A DNA stretch of 64,000 nucleotides from Auriscalpium vulgare. Its lineage: Eukaryota; Basidiomycota; Agaricomycetes; Russulales; Auriscalpiaceae. Each line of letters begins with the position of its first letter. The stretch's first letter is position 1. Of the stretch, positions 3,401 through 50,859 are shown piece by piece. Location: positions 372,001 to 436,000 of the forward strand of contig JAHBBC010000027.1 in NCBI GenBank assembly GCA_019915015.1, in the 5' to 3' direction. Under the pieces are notes generated by a model that had not been told where the DNA came from, made no database searches, and saw only the letters and a program-made list of their open reading frames with translations. The position numbers and the translations under genes were made by a program.

Positions 3401-5573
3401 ATGTTTACCTCAATTATTCAAAGATTTCGTTCAATGTTGACACGAAAGCGTAGGTCCGCTGTCCCCTCCGTTCGGAGCGGGCTCAGTACCGACAGGTTGT
3501 GGTCGTCCGAGGGCGAACACCACTCTGTGGAGAACATCCCTGACGAACACAGCGCCGACGCCCCCCAAGCATCCGTACAAGTGGATTACAGCTCCACGGA
3601 CAGCATCCCCGATTACCCTGCGGCCCCCAGCGCCAACGTTCTGTCAGCAGCATCCCAGGATGGCAGTCATCCTCGTCCAGGTTCAATCAACAGCACGGCC
3701 TGCTCCATTCACTCCTATGCGCTCTTACGGGACGACGCTATACGCCAGCACAAAAACTTGCTGGCGGAATTTTGCCGCCTCCGCAACTACTTTTGGATCT
3801 CCGCCTGCGGCCTGCCCGACGAAATCCTAATACACATCTTCTCCTTCTGTTCCGACGAACGAAAGAAGGCGGTCCGTGGCTGCCAGCACCGTGTGTGGCA
3901 CTGGTTCCAAGTCACACATGTGTGCAACCGCTGGCGGAAGGCGGCGCTACAACCATGCGAGCTGTGGCGCACGATCGACATGTCATGGGGACAGGATTGG
4001 TTGCGGCTGGCCGCCAGCCGGGCAAAAGGGCCGCTGACTATACATCCTGGTGTCGGCCCCGCAAGGCTGCGATGTCAGGTCCTGGATGAACACTTCGACA
4101 GGATCGTGCAGCTACACATCACGGTTAGTCCTGAAGAAGTTTCCACGATGAGTTCTCGCGGCGCACCAAAGCTGGAGGACTTGACACTGGTCGTGCGGGG
4201 AGAAGGTGGCCCCTCATGGACAGAAGCACCTTTCGGAGGATACGCACCAAATCTGCGCAAGCTCACCCTCGATGGCACATGGTTCTACAAGTGGGATAAT
4301 CGTGTGTGGAGCAAAATTGGGAGCATTTGCCTGCGCCACCTGCCGACTCGGAGGCACCTGGATCAGTCGGAGGTTACTTCGCGTCTTCGCACAAATGCCC
4401 CAGCTGAAGAACATCGAAATGGAATTGGTACCAGAGCTCAGGAATGCCAAGGATCTCTTACGCGTCAAATTGCCAGTACTGGAACGTTTGAAGCTAGACG
4501 GTTATGCCCAATGGATTGCAGCAATGCTTGAATCCCTGGACCCTGATCCGGCGCAGACAAACATCTACCTGAACGCGGAATACGATCCGAATCGCCCACG
4601 CAATCGCATTCACGGGAACTTCACCGCCTACTCCATTTTCCCTATTGTTGCCCACCTTATTCAAAAGTCGACCGCTCGGTTCCAGCACTCAGACTTGAGA
4701 GTCCATTCCGCCTACCATAGCGAGACGGATTCATACAAGGTTGTAGAATTCAAAGCACATACCAAAAATCCCCATCGCAATTTCTCCCTCACGTTGAAGG
4801 TCAGCCCCTTTGAGGAATTCTACGCCAGCAAAGCGATATTCAACTTCATGGATACCATACCAAAAGCGCTGGACGATCTGTTCCGGATGGACGTGCATAT
4901 GGACCACAGATGGGGACAGAAGCACTGGCGTAGTCTTTTCAAGCGTGCAGGTGGAGTCCAGGAGATTGACATCAAGTCAGACCTGAAGAACATGGAGAAT
5001 CTGGTGGCAGGCCTCCAATCCTCGCGACTTGCCGCCGATGGTATGCTAGAGGATGACCACATGCTCCCATGTCCACAACTGCGGAAACTCCTGTTTACTG
5101 AATGGCAAGAATTGGTCGATGAGCACTTCGATCCAGATGATGTGCTGCATCCTCTGGCAGCTGGTGGACAAGAGGAAGGTGAAGGAGGTGACGGTGTGGG
5201 ATTGGAAGCTATCACACCGGACGGTACAGGAGACAACGAAGACACTGATCCTCCCGAGGATAGTGAGGAAGGCAGCGACGTGGACACCGAATCTGTCGCA
5301 TCGTATGATGCAGGATTTTTTGAAGGAGGTTCAATCGTGCCCGACGAGCACAGCGGGGTGACGGAAGCGACTCCCGGAGGCCATAGCAGCATGCTCCAGA
5401 GCAACCAGTATGCAGACGACCTCCGACTTGTCGAGAGACGAAGGGTGTTGGGAAGGGAAATTGACGCGATTTTAGAACAGCGCGAGCAGACTGGTTTGCT
5501 CTCAGAGTACAGATACTGGATATGTCGCCAGCGCGAAGATGGGAACTTTGTACTTGTAGAGACAAAATTGTGA
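3401..5573 (+). CDS. F-box protein with frame break near 4310-4395
   Basis: This is a probable F-box substrate adaptor for an SCF ubiquitin ligase. The ATG at 3401 opens a Ser/Pro-rich N-terminus. An F-box-like motif follows, beginning LPDEILIHIFSFC at about residue 144, with the typical later pattern WFQVTHVCNRWRKAAL and LWRTIDMS. Leucine-rich-repeat-like stretches such as PNLRKLTLDG come next. The C-terminal half (frame 3, to 5573) holds more repeat-like segments and an acidic tail. The two halves lie in different frames. Either a 61-bp GT-AG interval at 4306-4366 is an intron, which would restore a 703-residue product, or there are two single-base deletions. The second option is suggested because frame 1 briefly reads EAPGSVGGYFAS between the halves. 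Fungal F-box proteins of this size are common and usually of unknown substrate. Confidence 0.8.
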
Positions 5574-40789: not shown

Positions 40790-40993
40790 TGAAAAAGACC
40801 ATGGTGAGGTGCTGGACGAGTGAGGCCAGCGAGCAGCGTCGACATGGTGGATGGAGCATGAGAGGGGATGGGTTTGCGAGACGCGCTGGCGCGGCTTTTA
40901 TGCGCGCGGCGTGTTTGTCCCCCGTCTCAAAGCCAAACATGGCGTGTGCACGTCGACGCGTTGGCATCACGTGTGCTGCGGCGACCAATTGGG
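40790..40993 (-). repeat. Dispersed promoter/start-exon repeat, copy 5 (split by MULE)
   Basis: Minus-strand ATG at 40,845 opens MSTLLAGLTRPAPHHGLFHS, nearly the same as the copy at 23,521. Upstream are the TATA-like and CACGTG elements. The locus is cut at the CCAAT box (40,985-40,993) by the MULE insertion. Its continuation resumes at 50,851. Confidence 0.7.
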
Positions 40994-41021
40994 GGATAAC
41001 CAACGTGCCCACAGAGTGACG
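40994..41021 (+). repeat. Left TIR of MULE element
   Basis: The outer 12 bp are variable (6 of 12 shared with the right end) and the inner 16 bp, TGCCCACAGAGTGACG, are identical. It is preceded by TSD CCAATTGGG. Because CCAATTGG is itself palindromic, the exact outer boundary could also be placed a few bases outward, but the unoccupied paralogue supports the TSD reading. Confidence 0.85.
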
Positions 41022-41670
41022 CAATGCGAAGCACACACGCTTGACAGCGAATTTGATGGGGCAGGCGGCAGGAGTCGGCAGAAGTCGCCGGCAAGCTCCG
41101 AGGCAAGAAGTTGATGCGCACGCCTTCGAACCCATCATCCCGACGCAGCCCAAAGCGCATTGCCCGCCGTCCACCTGTCCGCTGATCCACCAGCCCCATC
41201 TCCCGACCAAACTCATGGCCATCAGCAGCGATCAGCAGCACGCTGTTTGGAGCATAGGCCAGTCAAATGGCAAGGCCTCCTCTTGCCTATTCATGCAAGC
41301 TTGCCTCCCACGTCGGCCAGCACGCTCCACGACGCCAACCACATGCAGCGCTTGGCACCGGCGTTGTCTGAACCTCCGCGCCCCAAGTTCCAACCCTGAG
41401 TGAGTGTACTGCTACTTGCAGAGCGTTCTCAAAGTCCTGACTGATGTGGGGCCTTGCATCACTGCGCACCTGGTCTCTAGGAATGTGATAGATGGTCTCA
41501 TGCCTGCGCACCTGCCGGTGTCGCACATGGAAAATGACAGTGCTTAGGTGCGTGGCTGGTCAAATCTTTGCATAGCGCATGGCTCATAGGTGAGCGTACA
41601 GTCAATATGGAACGTCTATGGACACACTCTCCAGCCCATTGCCCGGTCGCTCAACGCGAACGGCAACTAG
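41022..41670. other. MULE 5' region upstream of transposase
   Basis: No supported exon. It presumably contains the transposase promoter. No clear TATA box. The start codon of the transposase is uncertain, so part of this stretch could be 5' UTR. Confidence 0.4.
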
Positions 41671-44600
41671 GTGCGTCTCCCGCGGATGAATCCTTTGCGA
41701 GGGTCATTTCATGGCACTCGCGCTTCAGTTGCTCAACCAACACCCCAGGCACCTCCCCGAGCATTCGCCCATTCCCTACCGCTGCGCGTTCATCCCCGTC
41801 CCGCTGCGCGAGCACCTTTGTTCTTCGCCCCTGCCGCCACGCACCTCAATCTGACCAGCATCGCGACCGGGCTGTTGGCGTTCATGCCGAAGCTCTTCCA
41901 CCTGGAGGAACAAGTAGTACGTCACATTGCACTTACATGTCATTTTGACTAACGCTCCGATGAAATAGCCGCAACAAGGACATGCGCAAGGTAGTACAGC
42001 GGACGCCGATCCGTTCACTGACGTGTCCGTGAACTATGGCGATGCCCGCTTGTTGCGAGTTGTGGTAAGTCCCTCCAGCGATGACACCCTACGCAAACGC
42101 TGACGCCTTGACTCAGGTCCCTCTGGACAAGCTTCACAGTCCAGCAGACGTCCTCATCTCCATCAAGGGCATCTATACTGCCCAACAGGAAGTACGTCGC
42201 CTGTTCAAGGATACTCCGGCCGATCAGGCGGTGGCCCCGCCACTTCTCAAGGATGCCGGCCTCGACGTTTCGTCTCGGGAGCAGTTGGAGAATCGCTGGA
42301 ATGTTGTGTGGACAAACGGAGAGGCTGTGGGGCAGAGCGCGCGCAGGATCCTAGTACAGTGGTATATATCTTACGCATGTATCTACCTCACACTTGCGTC
42401 CCATACCTGAATTTTAGTGGATGTGGGTACAGCAACGAAGCACGACAACAAAGAGAGAACAAGCTACGCGCGAAGAAGGGTGAAACCGTCAAGGACAAAC
42501 CGTCCACACGGTTTGCGCCCTTCGACTACACTGGGTGTATGGCCCACGCAGATATCACATTTGCTCCGGGCTCCAGCGATCGCATCACACGTCTAGTGGG
42601 ATATCTTGAGCACAACGAAGCCTGCCAACACGCATTCATTCGGCGCGTACCTGCGGTTCCCCTGCATGCGCACGTCGTCGAGATTGCACTGGCCCAGCTG
42701 TCCGAAGGCGCAAGGTACGTTCAGGCCCTGCTTCGCCTTTTGCACAACGCTGATTCTCTTTTGTAGCCTGCAGATGATTCAGGCGCGGAATGCAGACAAG
42801 GCGTACCGAGGGCAGAGAGACTGGGACCCCCTGCGAGCGAATGTACGCTACGAATTGCTGGGGAGCGACGTAGGCGGCCTGTACCGCCGCCATCACAAAG
42901 CCAACGGCATCGACATACAGAGGGCACCGGAACTGAACGTCGAAGACTGGTTGACAGCGGGTTCTCGAGGCTTCAACCAGACGATCTACGATGCTGTCTT
43001 TCACTACGCGGCTCGGACCAAGAAGGACGAGCGTTTCATCGCCTGCATTTCGACCCCCGAGATGGACGAGGCGGCCTGGAAGTACGTCCACGGGTCCCAG
43101 CTCATCCTCGACGGCACGTTCGGACTATCGACAAGTCGCATTCTCACCTGGATTGCCATGGGGGTAGACGATACAGGAAAGGGCGTCCCGGTCACGATCT
43201 TCCTCTTCTCCGCACCCACCGGCAGTCGCGCGACCCATGCTGGGTACAACACCAAGATCATCACGGAGCTGCTGGCGCAATGGAATGCGCACCTTAACAA
43301 GAGCCCATTTGCGCGGCAGAGGACCTTCGCGCCGGGCCTGGGCATCACGGACACAGATGCGGACACAGATGCAAAGGAGCGTGGTGCTCTGCTTGTCGTT
43401 TGGCCGTTCATTGTCCTCCTCCTGTGCAAATTCCATGTTCGCCAGTGCTGGACCAACAAGCGCAACTCCCTGTTGGGCAGCGGCAGTCGGGACAAAGACG
43501 ATCAACCTTCGTATGCAAAGGTGATCGTTCGCGAGAGGGCTCGCATGATGGAAAACATGTGCGCACCTTCGCTGCAGTTGTTTCAATGTATTAATCCTGA
43601 CTACGTGGCAGTCTGATAGAGTCCATTGATCGCGCGGATGCACAGGCCTTGCTCGATGTTGAAAAGAGGTACCTGGATGTCTTTGGAAAGACGCCGGCCA
43701 ATCAGGCAGCAAGCAAGGCAGGTGCAGAGTTCATCTCGTACCTGGAGAAGACCTGGATGCCAGAAGCTCTCTGGGCCGGGTGGTCTCGGGGCGGACGTAT
43801 GCTGGCGGCTCAGCGTCTGAATGTGCCTGTCGAGCGCATTCTTCCTACAACCAACCATCTCGAGTCATTCAACAACGCCTTGAAGAATCGATACATTCCT
43901 CAGTGGCAGCACTCCGGACATCGCTTGCGGTTTGACGTACTCATTTGCCATCTCGTCACCCACATTCTGCCCCGAATTTTCGCCCAACAGCGCCTTCGAC
44001 TTCAATATGCCCTTTGGAAAGCAAACCGTTTCCTAGGAGCGGCGGGAGGCCCTGCGCCCGCCAGTGCAGCTTCAGCAAGAATTAGGGTGGAAAAAGAGCG
44101 ACGCGTTGTCGCCTGGTACGAGCCCGACGGTCGGAGAGATGTTCTTGCCGCCGAGATTGCGTCGAGCGGAAGTATCTCCTTTCTTTCTGCAGCGCGGCCC
44201 TTTGAGCTATGGGCAACATGCGCATCATCCAAAGCCACACTCACGGACGCAGAATATCCCCGTTATTGGCTCACGCTCCATTCCTCTGGCTTGGCGACTT
44301 GCTCCTGTCCCGACTGGATTCAGCGTGGTTGTGCGTGCAAGCATATGCGCGCACTCTGCATAGTCATCCAGCTATCTCGCCCGAACTTGACGACATACCA
44401 GTTGCCCAAATCTTGTGAAGACGCTGGCCGTTTATTCGCAGAAACACAGGCCTGGTATGGTGCTGGCTTTGGTGAAGCGGTAACAGCCGCATTGTCACCG
44501 GTTGCATATCCGCAAGGGTATTGCTCACCTCTCGCTCCACCGAACATGCAACTCGTCGGCACGCCCACCAATGTCCTGCCGCCAGTCCGTCTTGCGGAGA

Positions 44601-45208
44601 TCATGCCGTCGACGGAGGTCATGGAATCTTTGCCAGAGAGCGTCAGCGATTTCGAAGCCGACGACTGTAATGTGCGTACCGTCAGTGCTCTGTATATCCG
44701 AAACACTCAGCAGCTCACCCGGCGCGCCTTAGATGGATGTTGACCCAGATGATGCACCGCAAAACAACACACCGCAAGGCCGCCAATCCGACCAGGACAT
44801 CCACCAGGCCAACGTCAGCGCGATCCAATCTCAGATGCAGCAACGCGTGGAGCACGACACAGCGTACGTTCTGCCAAAGCTCCACGGTCTGTTGACTGCG
44901 CTTCAAGATGCAGCGTACATCAGTTCCTCATCAGAACTACTGGAGATGAAAGACCTACTGGGAGCCCTAAGCGACGAGCTTGCGCTCAAGCTCGCAGATA
45001 CATCTGCAATGGACGGCGACGGCAATCCGAAGCGCGTGGACCGCACAACAAAAATAAAGTTACCAGGTAAACACAGAGCTCTTGAAATGCACACTGTCCT
45101 CACCCGCGTTTCTTAGCTACACGCACGGCCAACACGCCCAGGTCTGAGCTGATGCCCCCGTCCCCTGAACGTGCACAAAAAAGATTCAAGTCGTATGGCG
45201 TCTTGTAA
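41671..45208 (+). CDS. MULE transposase with SWIM zinc finger (eight exons)
   Basis: Exons 41671-41913, 41969-42064, 42117-42361, 42418-42714, 42767-43558, 43612-44671, 44733-45066 and 45117-45208 are all GT-AG with consistent phases, giving about 1052 residues. An N-terminal Cys/His region (around CGCGYSNEARQQR, TGCMAHADITF and GYLEHNEACQ) resembles FLYWCH/FAR1-type DNA-binding modules. The DDE core has Asp near 409 in LILDGTFG, Asp near 489 in ITDTD followed by KERGAL, a Cys-x2-His pair in CKFHVRQCW near 514-517, and Glu near 643 in NHLESFNNALK. A SWIM finger CSCPDWIQRGCACKH lies near 789-803. The C-terminus ends SPERAQKRFKSYGVL, a tail I recall from related Agaricomycete proteins. No premature stop was found, so it is likely functional or recently so. 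The start ATG is the least certain part. Confidence 0.88.
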
Positions 45209-47163
45209 TACCTAGAACTTCATTAATATCTATCAACTACTGCGATTCCTGCCTTTGCTGGACCCTAAGTCTCGTCTTGGTCTCATCTACGTCTTGCGGT
45301 GGAGCGCTGCTAGCGGAAGTACATGACCTGCGTGGGCGGCGGTGCGGTTGCGGGCGCGGTGGGAGAGGCGAGACCACTGGGAGTGGCGAGACGGCTGCGT
45401 GGTACAGGCGGGGGCGGCAGCATACGATGGCGTGTCTCCTGGAGAGCTGGATTTACGGACGTGGTGGTGTTTGAACAGGGTTGAACAGGTGCGATGACGC
45501 GCACGCAGAGACGTAGGCCATGGCGCCAACCCTACGTGGCACGCGGGCAGCGATGGGGCGCATCTTCGCTGTTGCGTCGACCCTCTTCGCTGTTGCGTCG
45601 ACCCATAGCATGCGCACTCGCGTCGCAATACAGCTTCTGGCATGAAAGATTATGCATTGCCGGCCATCCGAGAGTACTAGTAACGAATGAACAGGCCGCT
45701 CAACTCGCGCGCGCTCCTCTGCACGCCGCGCCGGTACAAAACGGGCATCCTCCTCCTCTCATGCTCCCGCTCCTCCAATACGCCGTCAGCTGCGGCCACG
45801 CGACGCCTGCCTCCATGCCGCTGTTCACAGACTGTGTGCACGACGACGCGCCACACGGTGCCACCACCCCGACATCGGTGCTCGCTCGATCCGTGCGCCG
45901 ATTCCTGGGGGCGGGTGCGCGCACGGCGAGGGCGGCCACACGCGGATGCGCGCAGGGCGGGTGCGGGTGCACACGAGGCCGAGGGCGGGTACGCGCACGG
46001 TGAGCATGGGTGCACGCGAGGTGACGGTGGGTGCGCGTGGGCGGTGAACGCGAGGCGAGCATGGGTGCGCACGACGGTGGGTGCACAGCGAGGGCGGGTG
46101 CGCGGCGAGGGCGGGTGCGCGGCGACGGCGAGGGCGGGTGCGCGGCGACGGCGAGGGCGGGTGCGTGGCGACGGCGGGTGCGTGGCGACGGCGAGGGCGG
46201 GTGCGCGCGCGGTGACGGTGGGTGCGCGTGGGCGGTGAACGATCAGTGTGGGCACACTGGGAGTTGCGGACCACAGCGACTTGAGCGGGGTGGAGACGAG
46301 AGCCATGCAAGGACGGCGCGCGGAGTTACTGCAGCAGTGGAGCACGCGTTGGGGCGACGGCGAGCGAGCTGCGGTGCTGCTGGGCAATAAGGCGGCGGGC
46401 GTACTGCGGTGGAGACCTGGCAAGATGGGCGCACACGCTGGAGTGTCTCCGACGTTGCTGAAGGGACCGCGCGCGCCATCGCGCCATGGAATTGCGAGGC
46501 TGTTGCTAAGGCGACCACAGACGCGGCTGGAGAGTTGTTGGGCAGCGGGCTCGCACTGGGACGATGGGGCGCAAGCTGGGGTGCTGGTGCGGGAGTTGTG
46601 ATGTCGCGCTCTGTCAAATAATGCTGATGAGGACCCTGCAACAACAAAGACGGCGTAGAACATACCTCTGCTGGTGGCATGAGCACTGTGACGTGGCGCC
46701 GACATGACGACGCGCAGCACGTCTTTCGACCCTTCAACGAGACTCCGGTGTGTGTCGGACGGCAGAGCCAGACGTATTGGAAGGGAAAGGGTGGGGTAGG
46801 GTGCGGCGGGACCAAAAAGAATTTAAAAGGACGGGTGGGGAGGGTGGTTGGAGACGACAGCGAAGTAAGGAGGGTGGTTGGCGACGACAGCTTTCTGCAG
46901 CAACCCCGCGGTCCAGAACCAGCAAAGGGCGCGCTTCACGTCGAACGGCAGTCCAGAACTAGCCGTGTGTCCGACGCAAAGGGCAGTAGGCCGTGGGGTG
47001 CAAGTCGTGCTGGTGGTGGTGGTGGGGTGGAAGGAACAGCGAAGCGACGCGACGCGACTTGAACTTGCCAGCGCATCAGCGCCGCACTGCCACACGCATC
47101 AGCGCATCACTCGGCCGCGCTTCTGCTTCTTCCCATCACCTTCTCTCTTTCCGCACTGTCTCG
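45209..47163. other. GC-rich spacer between MULE transposase and TET/JBP gene
   Basis: Nearly 2 kb without a supported gene. It contains the minisatellite at 45,930-46,245 and long shadow ORFs on the minus strand caused by skewed G content. The last 300 bp have purine-rich repeats such as 'gggtggttgg(a/c)gacgaca' (46,835 and 46,870) and probably hold the promoter of the dioxygenase gene. Confidence 0.45.
45930..46245. repeat. G-rich minisatellite
   Basis: Imperfect tandem array built from GGCGAGGGCGGGTGCGCGGC-type and GCGACGGCGAGGGCGGGTGC-type units, plus flanking 'gaggtgacggtgggtgcgcgtgggcggtgaac' which occurs twice (about 46,015 and 46,210). Runs of GGG separated by short loops could form G-quadruplexes on the plus strand. 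It lies inside the MULE element. Confidence 0.8.
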
Positions 47164-48577
47164 ATGACTGGGCACACGAAAGCCCCCTCAAGGGGCAGGA
47201 AGAAGACCCGCGGGCGACTGCGGCTCCCCGGTGAGGTGCCATCGTCTGGCCCCGGCGTCCTCAGGGCACCCGTGCCTGCGCGCAAGCCTACTCGCGAGCG
47301 CGAGTCTACGAGACTACGGCGCCCAAACATGAACGGTACGTCTCGCTCACACACTTGTTTACTCATATATCTACAGCTGAGCATTATAGATGCAACTCCG
47401 TCTACAGACAAAAGGAGCCTCGAAAAACAGCTGGACCAATTCGAGAGTCTCAATAGGCGCAAGTTGAAGGAAGCGCTTGACAACGCAGGTACGCTGCCTT
47501 GCGTGCATCCTCTCCTTTGCACTGAGTTTATCTTTGCAGTCCAAATTGATGTGGACCTCCGTGAGCTTGCGGCAATTGCGTGCGAGCTGACGGAGGATGG
47601 CGTCAATGACCTGTTGGAATATTTGCCCGCCTTCCAACGCCTTAAGCCGCAGAGCTTCACGGACGGGAAATCGCGTTCCTTCTTCGACCGCAATGGCCTG
47701 CTCATTGCGTTTCATTTTCCTGGGTACCTCTCAGAGCAAGTCAGCGTACGTTTTCAGTCTATATCACTCCGGCGTTGGCTCATTCTCAGCGTCTTCCTCA
47801 AGCGGAACCATGCGCACTACCTCGACGAATACGCCGCCGAATTCAAACCCAAGATGTCTGCTGACAAGCTTGGCCGCGGTGCTGCGGACGGTTACCGTGC
47901 CGAAGGAGAGAACAAGATAGGATGCACGCACGTCTCGCCAGGCTGGCACGAGATCGGCCGTCCTGTGCGTGTCTTGTTCATCTTTGAGGGCCCGCAGATG
48001 CTGACTTGGGACACAGAACGCTCCGTTGAGGCCCAGCCTCTCGTTATCGGGCACCAAGCCTCACGCGGATGCTACACAGAAGTTGCTTTCGCGGCTCCAG
48101 GTGTTCCAGCTGCGACTTGAGCACATGCTGAAGATTGCTGCGCCGGACCCTCAGCGCGCGTATGCCAAAGCGATAGACCATCTGCGCAAGGAATACCGCA
48201 CCGCGGCGCATGCAAAGGGCTGGCCATCGTCGTTCCAGGGTATTTCGATCATATACAACCGCGAGACGCCAGCCCATCGCGACGACAAGGGCTGCCTTGC
48301 TGGTGTTGACGCGCTGTTGAGCGTAGGCCCCTACTCTGGCTGCATGCTAGAGATGCCCATTTTCCGTACGGGCCTTGGTTATGACTCCGGTACGCTTATC
48401 TTCATACTGGGTTGCATTGTGCCTCACAAGGTATCGGGCTGGAGCGCGGGAGGCCAGCGCACATGCCTTGTTCACTTTACGCACAAAGATATCCTCAAGG
48501 ACTTTAATATCACGGAGCCTCAGTTCACTACTTACGAAGGCCTTCTTGAGGCGTATCCATGGAAGCCTAAAGACTGA
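47164..48577 (+). CDS. TET/JBP-family 2-oxoglutarate/Fe(II) dioxygenase (four exons)
   Basis: Exons 47164-47335, 47390-47488, 47540-47964 and 48017-48577 give 418 residues with consistent phases. The family oxidises 5-methylcytosine or thymine in DNA using Fe(II), O2 and 2-oxoglutarate. The N-terminus is basic with an AT-hook-like stretch (SRGRKKTRGR). The C-terminal double-stranded beta-helix core shows the iron ligands His319-x-Asp321 in YNRETPAHRDDKG, His369 in GCIVPHKVSGW and the 2-oxoglutarate Arg380 in GGQRTCLVHF, with GWPSSFQGISI before them, as in fungal TET/JBP proteins. All ligands are present. Fungal family members are known from KDZ transposons. This one lies inside a MULE, between the transposase and a convergent GRF gene (118 bp between stop codons). 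The substrate base is not predictable from the sequence. Confidence 0.88.
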
Positions 48578-48695
48578 GTAGCAGTACTGTTTTACTTTCA
48601 TTTACTTTCAAAGGCAATCAGGATGTTTATACCATTGCGTGCAGTCACTAAGTACATGTTACAACAAGAAAGAGACAGCGCAAGCGTAAGCTACA
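48578..48695. terminator. Shared 3' intergenic region of convergent genes
   Basis: The 118 bp between the TET/JBP stop (48,577) and the GRF gene stop (48,696) must contain 3' processing signals for both strands. A TTTTACTTTCATTTACTTTC tract lies at about 48,590-48,610, with A-rich sequence after it. No canonical AATAAA was seen, which is usual for fungi. Confidence 0.4.
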
Positions 48696-50198
48696 CTAGG
48701 CAGAGCCGTACTCGGAGGAGTCAGAGGTCATGTACCGAGGGTCAAAGAAATCAACGGGGCCAACAACGGTACGGAGGAGCTCGGCCTTCTCTGCCTTGCG
48801 CTTCTCCTTAGCGACAATGTGCGGGAGCTGGTTGAGCTTCCTCATCTTCGACGGGCCCGCCTTCGCATTCGGCGCCGCCTTACGCTTGCCCTTCCCCTTC
48901 GTATCACCTCCCTTCGCCTCGCTGCTGACCGCCTTGGTCTTGGTCTTGGCCTCTGCGGTGGAGGTGTCCTTCTTTGCGAGGGTGTAGTCGTTGATGAGGC
49001 GCATGCCAGCAAGGTGGCAGCGGTGCGTGCGAAGGGCGGCGGCGGTCATGATGAGCTGGCACGACTCACACCTGGCTAGCAAGCGGATGAGGTCGTCGAT
49101 GCGCAGGCCTGGGTTGTTGACGTCGCCGAGGGAAAAGAGCATGCGGATGCACTCGAAGTCGGGCAGAGGGACGTCGCCGTCGCGGTTGGGAATGACAATG
49201 GGGATGTTGGCGTCGTTGCCCCAGCCAAGCTGAAGGTCGACTAAGAAGTCGTCTGCATCTGAGTAGTTGCGCGTCAGGTATGTTCAAAAATATATGATGG
49301 AACGGCGCACCATTCTGTGACTGCGTGGCGGGCGCGAACGATGCGCTGACGCCGCGCTTCGCGGTTGCCTCGGGGGTGTTAGGTTCTGTCGTCCCCTCGA
49401 AGGGTGCCGCTCCGGGTTCGATCTTGACGTGCTTTGGCGTGTCCGCGTCACTATTTCCAGTGAAGAGTGCTCCAGCGCGAACTGTGAGTAGGAGGGTCAG
49501 TGCTTTTCAGTCGCTTGTCATCAAGAGACGAACGTACCGAGGGGCCTCTGCACAGGCGTACGCACAGGCGATACGAACCGTCCTGTTGCCAGGTCGATCT
49601 CTGTGCAAAGCACACCGCATCAGCGTGAGGTAGACGACGAGGGGAAAGACTAGCTTGCCTTCGGGTGAAAGAGCGTCATAGATTGCAGTGGGGAGGTTCG
49701 GACTTTTGGCAATAACGATATGGGTGTCCTCTGTGCAAGCGTCAGTCATAGGTAGAAAGAATTCAGGAAAAGAGGACTTACGCCACCAGCCGCAGGTCAT
49801 CGTAGCGCACGCAAAGCAGACATGCCCGAAATTCTGGTTGCCCTCGGTGCGCGGAACGACTATCTTGACTTGGTGATTGTAACCGGTCTTCAGGCCGCAG
49901 AAGCAATGAGGCTTGGTGAACTTGTGCGTTGCGATGTACGACTCGAGCTCGTCGACTGCGACCAGCGTGCGGTTGGGCCACTCGGGGCTACGCGCAGGTG
50001 CCTAGGTGTCAGAAAAGTAAAGAGGTTGAAAGACTTGTAGAAAACTCACTATGGGATAGCGCGGAGCGGTCTATCAGGCCCGTCGTATGATGCAATGAAG
50101 GGGCACGCATTGAGCCGAGCCTTCCAGGGCACAAAGACCTCGTCGATGGGCGGGTACGTAGGCGACCGCTGGACCTTAGAGGGTGTAGACGGACCCAT
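48696..50198 (-). CDS. GRF-type zinc-finger protein (six exons)
   Basis: Minus-strand exons 50198-50050, 49987-49782, 49730-49651, 49598-49538, 49481-49311 and 49258-48696 give 409 residues. The 52-bp intron at 49,599-49,650 has a weak GTCTTT donor and is the least certain. A GRF-like zinc finger spans residues 78-119: CFCGLKTG, then KIVVPRTEGNQNFGHVCFAC and TCGWW. These match the pattern of single-stranded nucleic-acid-binding GRF domains (Cys78, 80, 107, 110 or 115). A linker with acidic and Thr-rich text, a second Cys pair in CESCQLI, and a Lys-rich basic segment (near residues 320-370) follow. It is convergent with the dioxygenase within the MULE. It might guide the enzyme or transposase to DNA, but that is inference from position. 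Confidence 0.8.
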
Positions 50199-50850
50199 AG
50201 CTCAGAGATGCAGCACGAGTGAGAAAGGCGGAAAAACTGTGCGCAAAACGACGAGAGATGGGCAAGGCGACGAGCGACCGTGCGCAGAGCGACGGCAAGA
50301 TGGGCAAGGCGACGAGCGACCGTGATGGGATGAGGCCGACGAGGGCAGCGGGTAAGACGGGGGAATTGGCAAGACTACGAGGGCAGGAGTGAGGCGGCGG
50401 CGGCAATGTCAGAGGTCAGCCAGCACAGAGCAAGCTTATATACGTGGCCGCGCTGTCACTAATCATGGTGCTGCCGAGTCGCGGTTCTGACGAGTCGCAG
50501 ACGTCGAGCGTCGAGCTGAGGGATGTATGAGCACCGCCAGACGGTGGGGAACAAGAGCGCATGGACGAACCTCGATGCTAAGAAAATCAGCGAATCTCGA
50601 AGGCGAAGGGCTCCTTGGGAAGTTGCCAAGTAAAGAGTCGCCAGTGACAAGTCGTCCGGTAGGAAAGAAGAGAGGGCGGGGCGACGATCAGGCGTCGGGC
50701 TGCACCCCAACTGGGACAGTGATGGCGGGAGGCGGAAGCCGGGAAGCAGAAGAAGCGGCTGACGGGAGCTGCCAGCTGGCTGGCGAGGAAGCATGATGGT
50801 GAATTTGATGGCTCACACGCTACGTCACTCTGTGGGCACAGTTAGTATAC
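50199..50850. other. MULE right subterminal region with GRF promoter
   Basis: Upstream of the GRF gene (minus strand). It contains a short tandem repeat (GATGGGCAAGGCGACGAGCG, twice at 50,259-50,321) and a TATATAAG box on the minus strand at 50,434-50,441, about 240 bp from the ATG. No other gene is supported. Confidence 0.5.
50823..50850 (-). repeat. Right TIR of MULE element
   Basis: Inverted partner of 40,994-41,021, with the identical 16-bp block at 50,823-50,838. It is followed by TSD CCAATTGGG at 50,851-50,859. Confidence 0.85.
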
Positions 50851-50859
50851 CCAATTGGG

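What the first reader, a model, noticed from the sequence alone, without database searches (positions are those of the whole stretch)
40994..50850. A MULE transposon that carries a TET/JBP DNA dioxygenase and a GRF zinc-finger gene
Seen directly: 28-bp terminal inverted repeats with a perfect 16-bp block, a 9-bp direct duplication CCAATTGGG at both ends, and three spliceable genes inside. From knowledge: fungal TET/JBP genes are best known as passengers of KDZ-type transposons. Here the transposase is clearly Mutator-like (DDE with C-x2-H and a SWIM finger). Inference: the dioxygenase and GRF protein are element-encoded factors that may alter methylation of the element or its target, or help it escape silencing. 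All three genes look intact.
Basis: partly seen in the sequence, partly recalled or inferred. Interest (0 to 1): 0.95.

Follow-up and report, generated by a model that had tools for sequence, protein, structure and literature searches.

The report
Jumping gene carrying DNA-demethylating-type enzyme
A mushroom-forming fungus carries a family of Mutator-type jumping genes that bring along an oxygenase gene, here one of the TET type that can erase DNA methylation, plus a third gene of their own, which suggests that these elements carry tools to escape the host's silencing.

Summary
Window 40994-50850 is a Mutator-like element with 28-bp TIRs (22 of 28 matching, inner 17 perfect), an exact 9-bp duplication, and three genes that splice without a stop: a SWIM-type MULE transposase, a TET/JBP dioxygenase and a convergent cysteine-finger gene. 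The label "GRF" is not supported: the Pfam GRF model misses the gene.

It is not a lone capture. The same genome (probably Auriscalpium vulgare) holds four diverged MULEs with the same order and orientation: transposase, oxygenase, finger gene. All four elements with both ends readable, window included, have exact 9-bp duplications. Two copies with unrelated left flanks share an identical oxygenase gene. In the four relatives the oxygenase is another 2OG-oxygenase-like family, not shown to be TET; the window copy holds a PF12851 enzyme related to CcTET. Relatives of both enzymes elsewhere in the genome often lie near KDZ transposases.

One dead fragment of the same element shows CpG-specific C-to-T decay that the intact copy lacks; other elements sampled show none. 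Anti-silencing is the best explanation, but no activity was tested. A 2025 survey of TET-bearing fungal transposons names ten carrier lineages, not MULEs. New variant of a known kind.

The parts
40985..40993 (.). 9-bp target-site duplication, left (CCAATTGGG)
   Evidence: read; exact copy at 50851-50859; other elements have exact 9-bp duplications
40994..41021 (+). left TIR, 28 bp
   Evidence: perfect 16-mer core occurs only twice in the genome
41884..45208 (+). MULE transposase, 8 exons, 981 aa (exons 41884-41913, 41969-42064, 42117-42361, 42418-42714, 42767-43558, 43612-44671, 44733-45066, 45117-45208)
   Evidence: SWIM PF04434 E=5.8e-4, MULE PF10551 E=0.033; 48 protein homologues, up to 47% identity
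46055..46228 (.). GC-rich tandem repeat array in the non-coding gap between transposase and TET gene (units about 17-40 bp)
   Evidence: function unknown
47164..48577 (+). TET/JBP dioxygenase, 5 exons, 399 aa (exons 47164-47335, 47390-47488, 47540-47745, 47803-47964, 48017-48577)
   Evidence: PF12851 E=6e-13 (model before the intron correction); CcTET structure 7vpn E=6e-14 with HxD, +5 Gly, +11 Asp, distal His and Arg aligned
48696..50198 (-). third gene, cysteine-finger protein (GRF-like by eye only), 6 exons, 407 aa (exons 50198-50050, 49987-49782, 49730-49659, 49600-49538, 49481-49311, 49258-48696)
   Evidence: paralogues in four other MULE elements; PF06839 does not match
50823..50850 (-). 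right TIR, 28 bp
50851..50859 (.). 9-bp target-site duplication, right (CCAATTGGG)
   Evidence: read

Best explanation
The window holds a complete-looking autonomous Mutator-like transposon of a lineage that carries three genes of its own: a transposase that acts on the TIRs and leaves 9-bp duplications, an oxygenase in a fixed slot between transposase and third gene, and a convergent cysteine-finger gene. In this copy the slot holds a TET/JBP enzyme related to CcTET. Most likely the enzyme oxidises methylated bases on the element's own DNA, so that the element stays expressed and escapes methylation-driven silencing and CpG decay; the finger protein may bind DNA and direct the enzyme or the transposase. 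Shown: ends, duplications, gene content, recurrence of the three-gene order, copies of one element in two places, conserved catalytic residues, low amino-acid divergence relative to silent divergence. Inferred: expression, 5mC oxidation, self-targeting, the role of the finger protein.
For: Ends and 9-bp duplications in 4 of 4 elements with both ends readable: window, C2 CATTGGAAC, C9 CCGGACCGT and C13 TCAGATATG; for the last two the right flank was in hand before the left end was fetched and found to match. Same order and orientation MULE, oxygenase, finger gene at window, C2, C9, C10, C13. The C9/C13-type TIR occurs exactly 4 times in the genome (reversed-pattern control 0), as two inverted pairs, both enclosing all three genes. 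C2 and C10 copies: left 1047 bp 99.9% identical with unrelated left flanks, oxygenase stretch 1176 of 1176 identical. TET/JBP assignment and CcTET-like residues. Constraint, pN/pS: TET 0.295 over 305 codons, relatives' oxygenase 0.248 over 181, finger 0.123 over 53. Premise of silencing: in a dead 5' fragment of the same family 79 of 366 CpG cytosines of the window copy read T, against 61 of 907 in other contexts; in reverse 19 of 244 CpG and 41 of 952 others. In A. vulgare proteins, a MULE (P0012) and the best TET homologue (P0001) both come from a contig listed as 4,236 bp, so probably linked in a second element.
Against: No expression, enzyme or methylation data. The dead fragment is one independent case (C53 duplicates C6), and the other five transposon stretches sampled (C13, C9, two KDZ-linked TET loci, the insert at C10) show no CpG depletion (observed/expected 1.04-1.41). 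[quoted passage not shown] The oxygenase of the four relatives could not be shown to be TET/JBP: profile comparison not significant, only a weak 2OG-FeII_Oxy_3 match in 3 of 3 sequences scanned (best E 0.012). So TET as such is shown in one MULE of this genome, plus a 185-bp remnant at C8 (80% identical). Structure prediction of the TET exon failed (pLDDT 35.6). The decayed MULE at C18 has no listed oxygenase or finger match within tens of kilobases. In the transposase tree the window MULE is unresolved and P0012 groups with an Artomyces protein (87/95), so the two TET-linked MULEs are not shown to be sisters.
Confidence: 0.66

Rival explanations
1. The TET gene is the remnant of a KDZ (Kyakuja-type) transposon that inserted into a MULE, a passenger by nesting.
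For: The closest sizeable TET relatives in this genome (67-72% identical, C10, C18, C6, C53) lie 11-24 kb from listed KDZ transposases, and six further near-identical copies within 5 kb; the window TET groups with a KDZ-linked one (80/87, five-row tree).
Against: No KDZ transposase match is listed inside the element. DNA similarity to the KDZ-linked TET at C10 is confined to pieces within 46904-48560. Four other elements hold an oxygenase at the same place and in the same orientation, 92-192 kb from any listed KDZ. Synonymous sites are nearly saturated (pS 0.64), so the separation is old. KDZ ends around the TET gene were not searched for.
Confidence: 0.08
2. Pack-MULE style capture: the element picked up host genes, and the oxygenase and finger gene do nothing for it.
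For: MULEs are known for acquiring host gene fragments (PMC6446971, abstract in the listing). No function was tested here.
Against: The cargo is whole, spliced without stops in the window copy, shows fewer amino-acid than silent changes and recurs in order and orientation beside transposases 44-56% identical to this one.
Confidence: 0.14
3. The enzyme acts on 6-methyladenine or on target-site DNA, helping transposition or target choice rather than undoing 5mC silencing.
For: CcTET oxidises 6mA as well as 5mC, and the residues reported for this (Gly at +5, Asp at +11 from the first His) are present (PMC12730594 section 3.4).
Against: The Asp is reported as essential for 5mC activity and not for 6mA (same section); one dead relative shows CpG-specific decay, which points to 5mC as the silencing mark.
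Confidence: 0.1

Closest known systems
TET+ DNA transposons of fungi (Kyakuja, Zisupton, Dileera, Plavaka, EnSpm, hAT, Harbinger, IS3EU, ESTA, Helitron; Kojima 2025, PMC12730594)
   Same: transposase plus a TET/JBP gene between the ends; some also a further gene in opposite orientation (IS3EU with an alpha-kinase); same proposed role
   Different: None of the ten lineages named in its abstract is MULE/MuDR (find in main text: MULE 0, Mutator 0, MuDR 2 in one place of the introduction; supplements not read). Russulales were reported with TET+ Kyakuja only.
Arabidopsis VANDAL elements with VANC anti-silencing proteins (PMC5735166, passages seen; PMC10398659, listing only)
   Same: Mutator-like elements that encode their own factor against DNA methylation; repeat arrays in non-coding parts
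   Different: VANC is described as a sequence-specific anti-silencing protein; here the factor is a predicted oxidising enzyme; no sequence relation was tested.
CcTET of Coprinopsis cinerea (PDB 7vpn, 8jkk)
   Same: catalytic domain homologous (E=6e-14), HxD, Gly, Asp, distal His and Arg kept
   Different: the window protein sits in a MULE; activity untested.
Fungal MULEs such as Mutyl (table row in PMC6446971, passage seen)
   Same: 9-10 bp duplications, short TIRs, a second antisense ORF
   Different: no TET/JBP gene reported: 'dioxygenase' and 'TET' occur 0 times in that paper's main text.

Membership tests
Mutator-like element (MULE) | related transposase with DDE core and SWIM finger | tested here: met
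   SWIM over cut-off; MULE domain below cut-off in the window protein but over it in homologue P0007; 48 homologues. The DDE and C-x2-H reading is by eye from recalled motifs.
Mutator-like element (MULE) | 9-bp target-site duplication and TIRs | tested here: met
   4 of 4 elements with both ends readable
TET/JBP dioxygenase | PF12851 over cut-off, HxD...H...R | tested here: met
   48.8 bits against 34.9; residues aligned to CcTET
TET/JBP dioxygenase | oxidation of 5-methylcytosine | not testable with these tools
   needs an enzyme assay
TET/JBP dioxygenase (oxygenase of the four relatives) | detectable relation to TET/JBP | tested here: not met
   no PF12851 match in the sequences scanned; hhalign probability 0.1%. 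HxD...H...R by eye, weak 2OG-FeII_Oxy_3
GRF zinc finger (PF06839) | match to the family model | tested here: not met
   no PDB match for a 3-sequence finger profile. The cysteine pattern is kept in the three paralogues aligned.
Kyakuja / KDZ TET+ transposon | KDZ transposase (PF18758) in the element | tested here: not met
   the only listed matches on C27 are at 344-345 kb, outside the element at 412.99-422.85 kb (150 of 168 matches listed)
VANDAL anti-silencing MULE | demethylates its own family | not testable with these tools
   needs methylation data

The most novel reading that the evidence does not exclude
A MULE lineage of mushroom-forming fungi has a standing three-gene plan with a module slot for an anti-silencing oxygenase. 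The slot has been refilled by unrelated or very distant oxygenase families taken from, or given to, KDZ transposons, while the transposase and a lineage-specific cysteine-finger protein stayed. The finger protein would be the constant partner that ties whichever oxygenase is present to the element.
Probability: 0.35. Interest if true: 0.78.

Novelty: new variant of a known kind. Interest (0 to 1): 0.64.

Why it matters
Whether transposon-borne TET enzymes really free their element from silencing is open. This lineage offers a comparison within one genome: comparable elements with a TET, with another oxygenase, and a dead, CpG-decayed fragment with neither. It also adds MULEs to the carriers of TET genes and shows a fixed gene order that argues against random capture.

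Tried and rejected
GRF label: not supported by Pfam on the protein and exon, a genome scan with the model, or a finger profile against PDB sequences. Link of the relatives' oxygenase to TET/JBP by profile comparison: not significant twice; PDB sequence searches gave no TET or other oxygenase. Structure prediction: finger exon pLDDT 59.8, TET exon 35.6; no fold search was run on either. Protein search with the third gene: none of 5232 candidates reached the threshold. First intron model of the TET gene kept 57 bp as coding; replaced after comparison with P0001; searches used the longer model. C10 right end: thought by eye to be a retrotransposon, Pfam found nothing. Idea that TET-linked MULEs form one clade: not supported (24 of 48 homologues used). 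CpG comparison of the window TET with the KDZ-linked TET: no asymmetry (23 of 215 against 22 of 227).

Full report
What was checked. The element is window 40994-50850, 9,857 bp. The two 28-bp arms match at 22 of 28 positions, and the innermost 17 bp are perfect. The core 16-mer occurs without mismatch at exactly two places in the 51.6-Mb genome, these two, in inverted orientation. With up to two mismatches there are 31 sites against 26 for the reversed control, so weaker matches mean nothing. The 9-bp duplication CCAATTGGG lies within a palindrome, so the boundary needed outside support, given below.

Genes. Splicing models with short introns (50-62 bp) give a 981-aa transposase and a 407-aa third protein without stops and a 399-aa TET/JBP protein. 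The third intron of the TET gene was corrected by comparison with P0001 of Auriscalpium vulgare. Pfam: SWIM E=5.8e-4 over cut-off, MULE E=0.033 under cut-off, Tet_JBP E=6e-13. The MULE assignment also rests on 48 homologues, many with the MULE domain precomputed. The TET protein matches the CcTET structures (7vpn E=6e-14), with the HxD motif, the Gly at +5 and the Asp at +11, and the distal His and Arg aligned. PMC12730594 (read: abstract, methods, sections 3.2 and 3.4, first part of section 4; passages by find) reports those Gly and Asp residues as important for 6mA and 5mC activity. The GRF label failed every test made.

Which organism. Six near-identical KDZ-linked TET copies have the same match score here; one of them matches A. 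vulgare protein P0002 at 171 of 173 residues compared. The assembly, 51.63 Mb in 96 contigs, is close to that published for A. vulgare CBS 236.39, 51.68 Mb in 104 contigs (table passage of PMC8401616). The identity is inferred. The window transposase has no homologue above 47% in a protein search whose hits include an A. vulgare strain (the 7995 best word-sharing candidates were scored), and P0012 and P0001 of that strain have no close match here. The two strains therefore seem to hold different elements, though unannotated genes would be missed.

The element is one of a lineage. A search of the own genome with the three proteins found MULE relatives at C2, C9, C10, C13 and C18 and a duplicated 5' fragment at C6/C53, finger-gene relatives at C2, C9, C10, C13 and C3, and an oxygenase gene between the two at C2, C9, C10 and C13. 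So 5 of the 8 MULE loci listed, window included, carry transposase, oxygenase and convergent finger gene in one order and orientation. The other three are the decayed C18 copy, with 5 TGA stops in its best match, and the C6/C53 fragment. C6 and C53 are 99.5% identical over 14.9 kb, including 1 kb of left flank, and count as one. These searches score best candidates only, so the counts are lower bounds.

Ends of the relatives. C2: CATTGGAAC on both sides, element 1226403-1270440; it is 44 kb long, with 35 kb between transposase and oxygenase. C9: the right flank read CCGGACCGT; the left end was then fetched and showed the same 9 bp next to a matching TIR; element 1517419-1532511, 15.1 kb. C13: the right flank read TCAGATATG, and the left end, fetched afterwards, showed the same; element 711081-736184. 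The C13 transposase gene appears interrupted by a Copia-type insert (RVT_2; position) and has an in-frame stop besides. All four elements with both ends readable thus have exact 9-bp duplications. C10 lost its right end. The C9/C13 TIR pattern occurs exactly four times in the genome, control 0, as two inverted pairs around all three genes.

Joint movement. The C2 and C10 copies share 99.9% of their left 1047 bp, starting exactly at the TIR, with unrelated left flanks. Their oxygenase stretch is identical at 1176 of 1176 positions. Transposase end and oxygenase therefore sit in the same moved unit. The finger gene is present in both, but similarity stops within it because C10 is cut there.

Two oxygenases in one slot. 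The oxygenase of the four relatives is not detectably TET/JBP; it shows a weak 2OG-FeII_Oxy_3 match in 3 of 3 sequences scanned and an HxD...H...R pattern by eye. Of the TET matches outside the window, ten loci with the catalytic part all lie within 25 kb of a listed KDZ transposase, six of them within 5 kb. Left out of that count: short pieces at C18:894279 and C6:182401 near two of the ten, and a 42-residue fragment at C8:473993, which has no listed KDZ within 400 kb and resembles the window copy most (80% over 185 bp that run past the TET stop), so it looks like a remnant of the same MULE. For the other oxygenase, of the 26 best loci (the four MULE-borne ones included) 10 lie within 10 kb of KDZ, and of 94 loci 26 do, while about 4% of the genome lies that near. 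The 94 loci are the 124 listed rows without second-exon rows and about eight weak loci; 150 of 168 KDZ matches were listed and used. The four MULE-borne ones lie 92-192 kb from KDZ. Both oxygenase kinds are thus shared between KDZ neighbourhoods and MULEs. The window TET groups with a KDZ-linked one, with modest support in a five-row tree (80/87).

Constraint and decay. pN/pS is 0.295 between the window TET and the KDZ-linked one, 0.248 for the relatives' oxygenase and 0.123 for the finger. In the dead C6 fragment 79 of 366 window CpG cytosines read T, against 61 of 907 in CpA, CpC and CpT; the reverse direction gives 19 of 244 CpG and 41 of 952 others. CpG observed/expected over the 2.1-kb stretch is 0.747 in C6 and 0.988 in the window copy. 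This suggests CpG methylation of a dead MULE copy and its absence, or recent escape, in the intact one. [quoted passage not shown] Selection and recency would also keep an active copy clean.

Second element with TET. P0012 (MULE, partial) and P0001 (TET) of A. vulgare both come from a contig listed as 4,236 bp. Their coding lengths fit together on one such piece. The contig could not be read, so the linkage is an inference. In a tree of 26 transposases (24 of the 48 homologues) the window MULE lies in a Russulales-rich group of ten (99/98) without a resolved sister, and P0012 groups with an Artomyces protein.

Literature. Kojima 2025 names ten carrier lineages without MULE (supplements not read). 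The other searches (titles and abstract openings of the listed papers only, between 10 and 20 of the 14 to 254 found) showed no paper on a MULE with a TET gene. Several listed papers that mention TET/JBP were not opened. The founding PNAS 2014 paper is not held, so its text was not checked. VANDAL elements (passages of PMC5735166) show that Mutator-like elements can carry anti-silencing factors of another kind.

Verdict. A real three-gene MULE; a new carrier of a TET/JBP gene as far as these searches show; function inferred.

Noticed in passing
L071 (C13) 4658-5446, minus strand: A cyclin-like ORF (Cyclin_N E=3.4e-11) lies inside the C13 element between transposase and oxygenase; not known whether it is cargo or came with an insert.
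   Followed up: no
L005/L006 (C6) against L007/L008 (C53): 14.9 kb at 99.5% identity between two contigs; possibly an unmerged haplotype or a segmental duplication.
   Followed up: no
L005 1126-3409: The 5' MULE fragment at C6 is split by a 2.28-kb insert that matches its own reverse complement at about 89%, so a large fold-back type element.
   Followed up: no
own genome: About 94 loci of an unnamed 2OG-oxygenase-like family, several about 6.4 kb from a KDZ transposase; no Pfam family matches the members scanned above cut-off.
   Followed up: partly
C3:948574 and C3:952444: A finger-gene match and an oxygenase fragment 4 kb apart without a listed MULE match, perhaps a remnant of one more element.
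   Followed up: no
L060 (C8:473993): A 185-bp stretch 80% identical to window 48444-48628, crossing the TET stop codon: probably a remnant of another copy of this element.
   Followed up: partly
window 41049-41059 and 50801-50811: An 11-bp stretch (gaatttgatgg) occurs in the window only at these two places, just inside both ends and in the same orientation; possible subterminal transposase site.
   Followed up: no
P0007, Stereum hirsutum: A protein model that joins a MULE transposase to a Mug190 C2 domain, either a fusion or a gene-model error.
   Followed up: no
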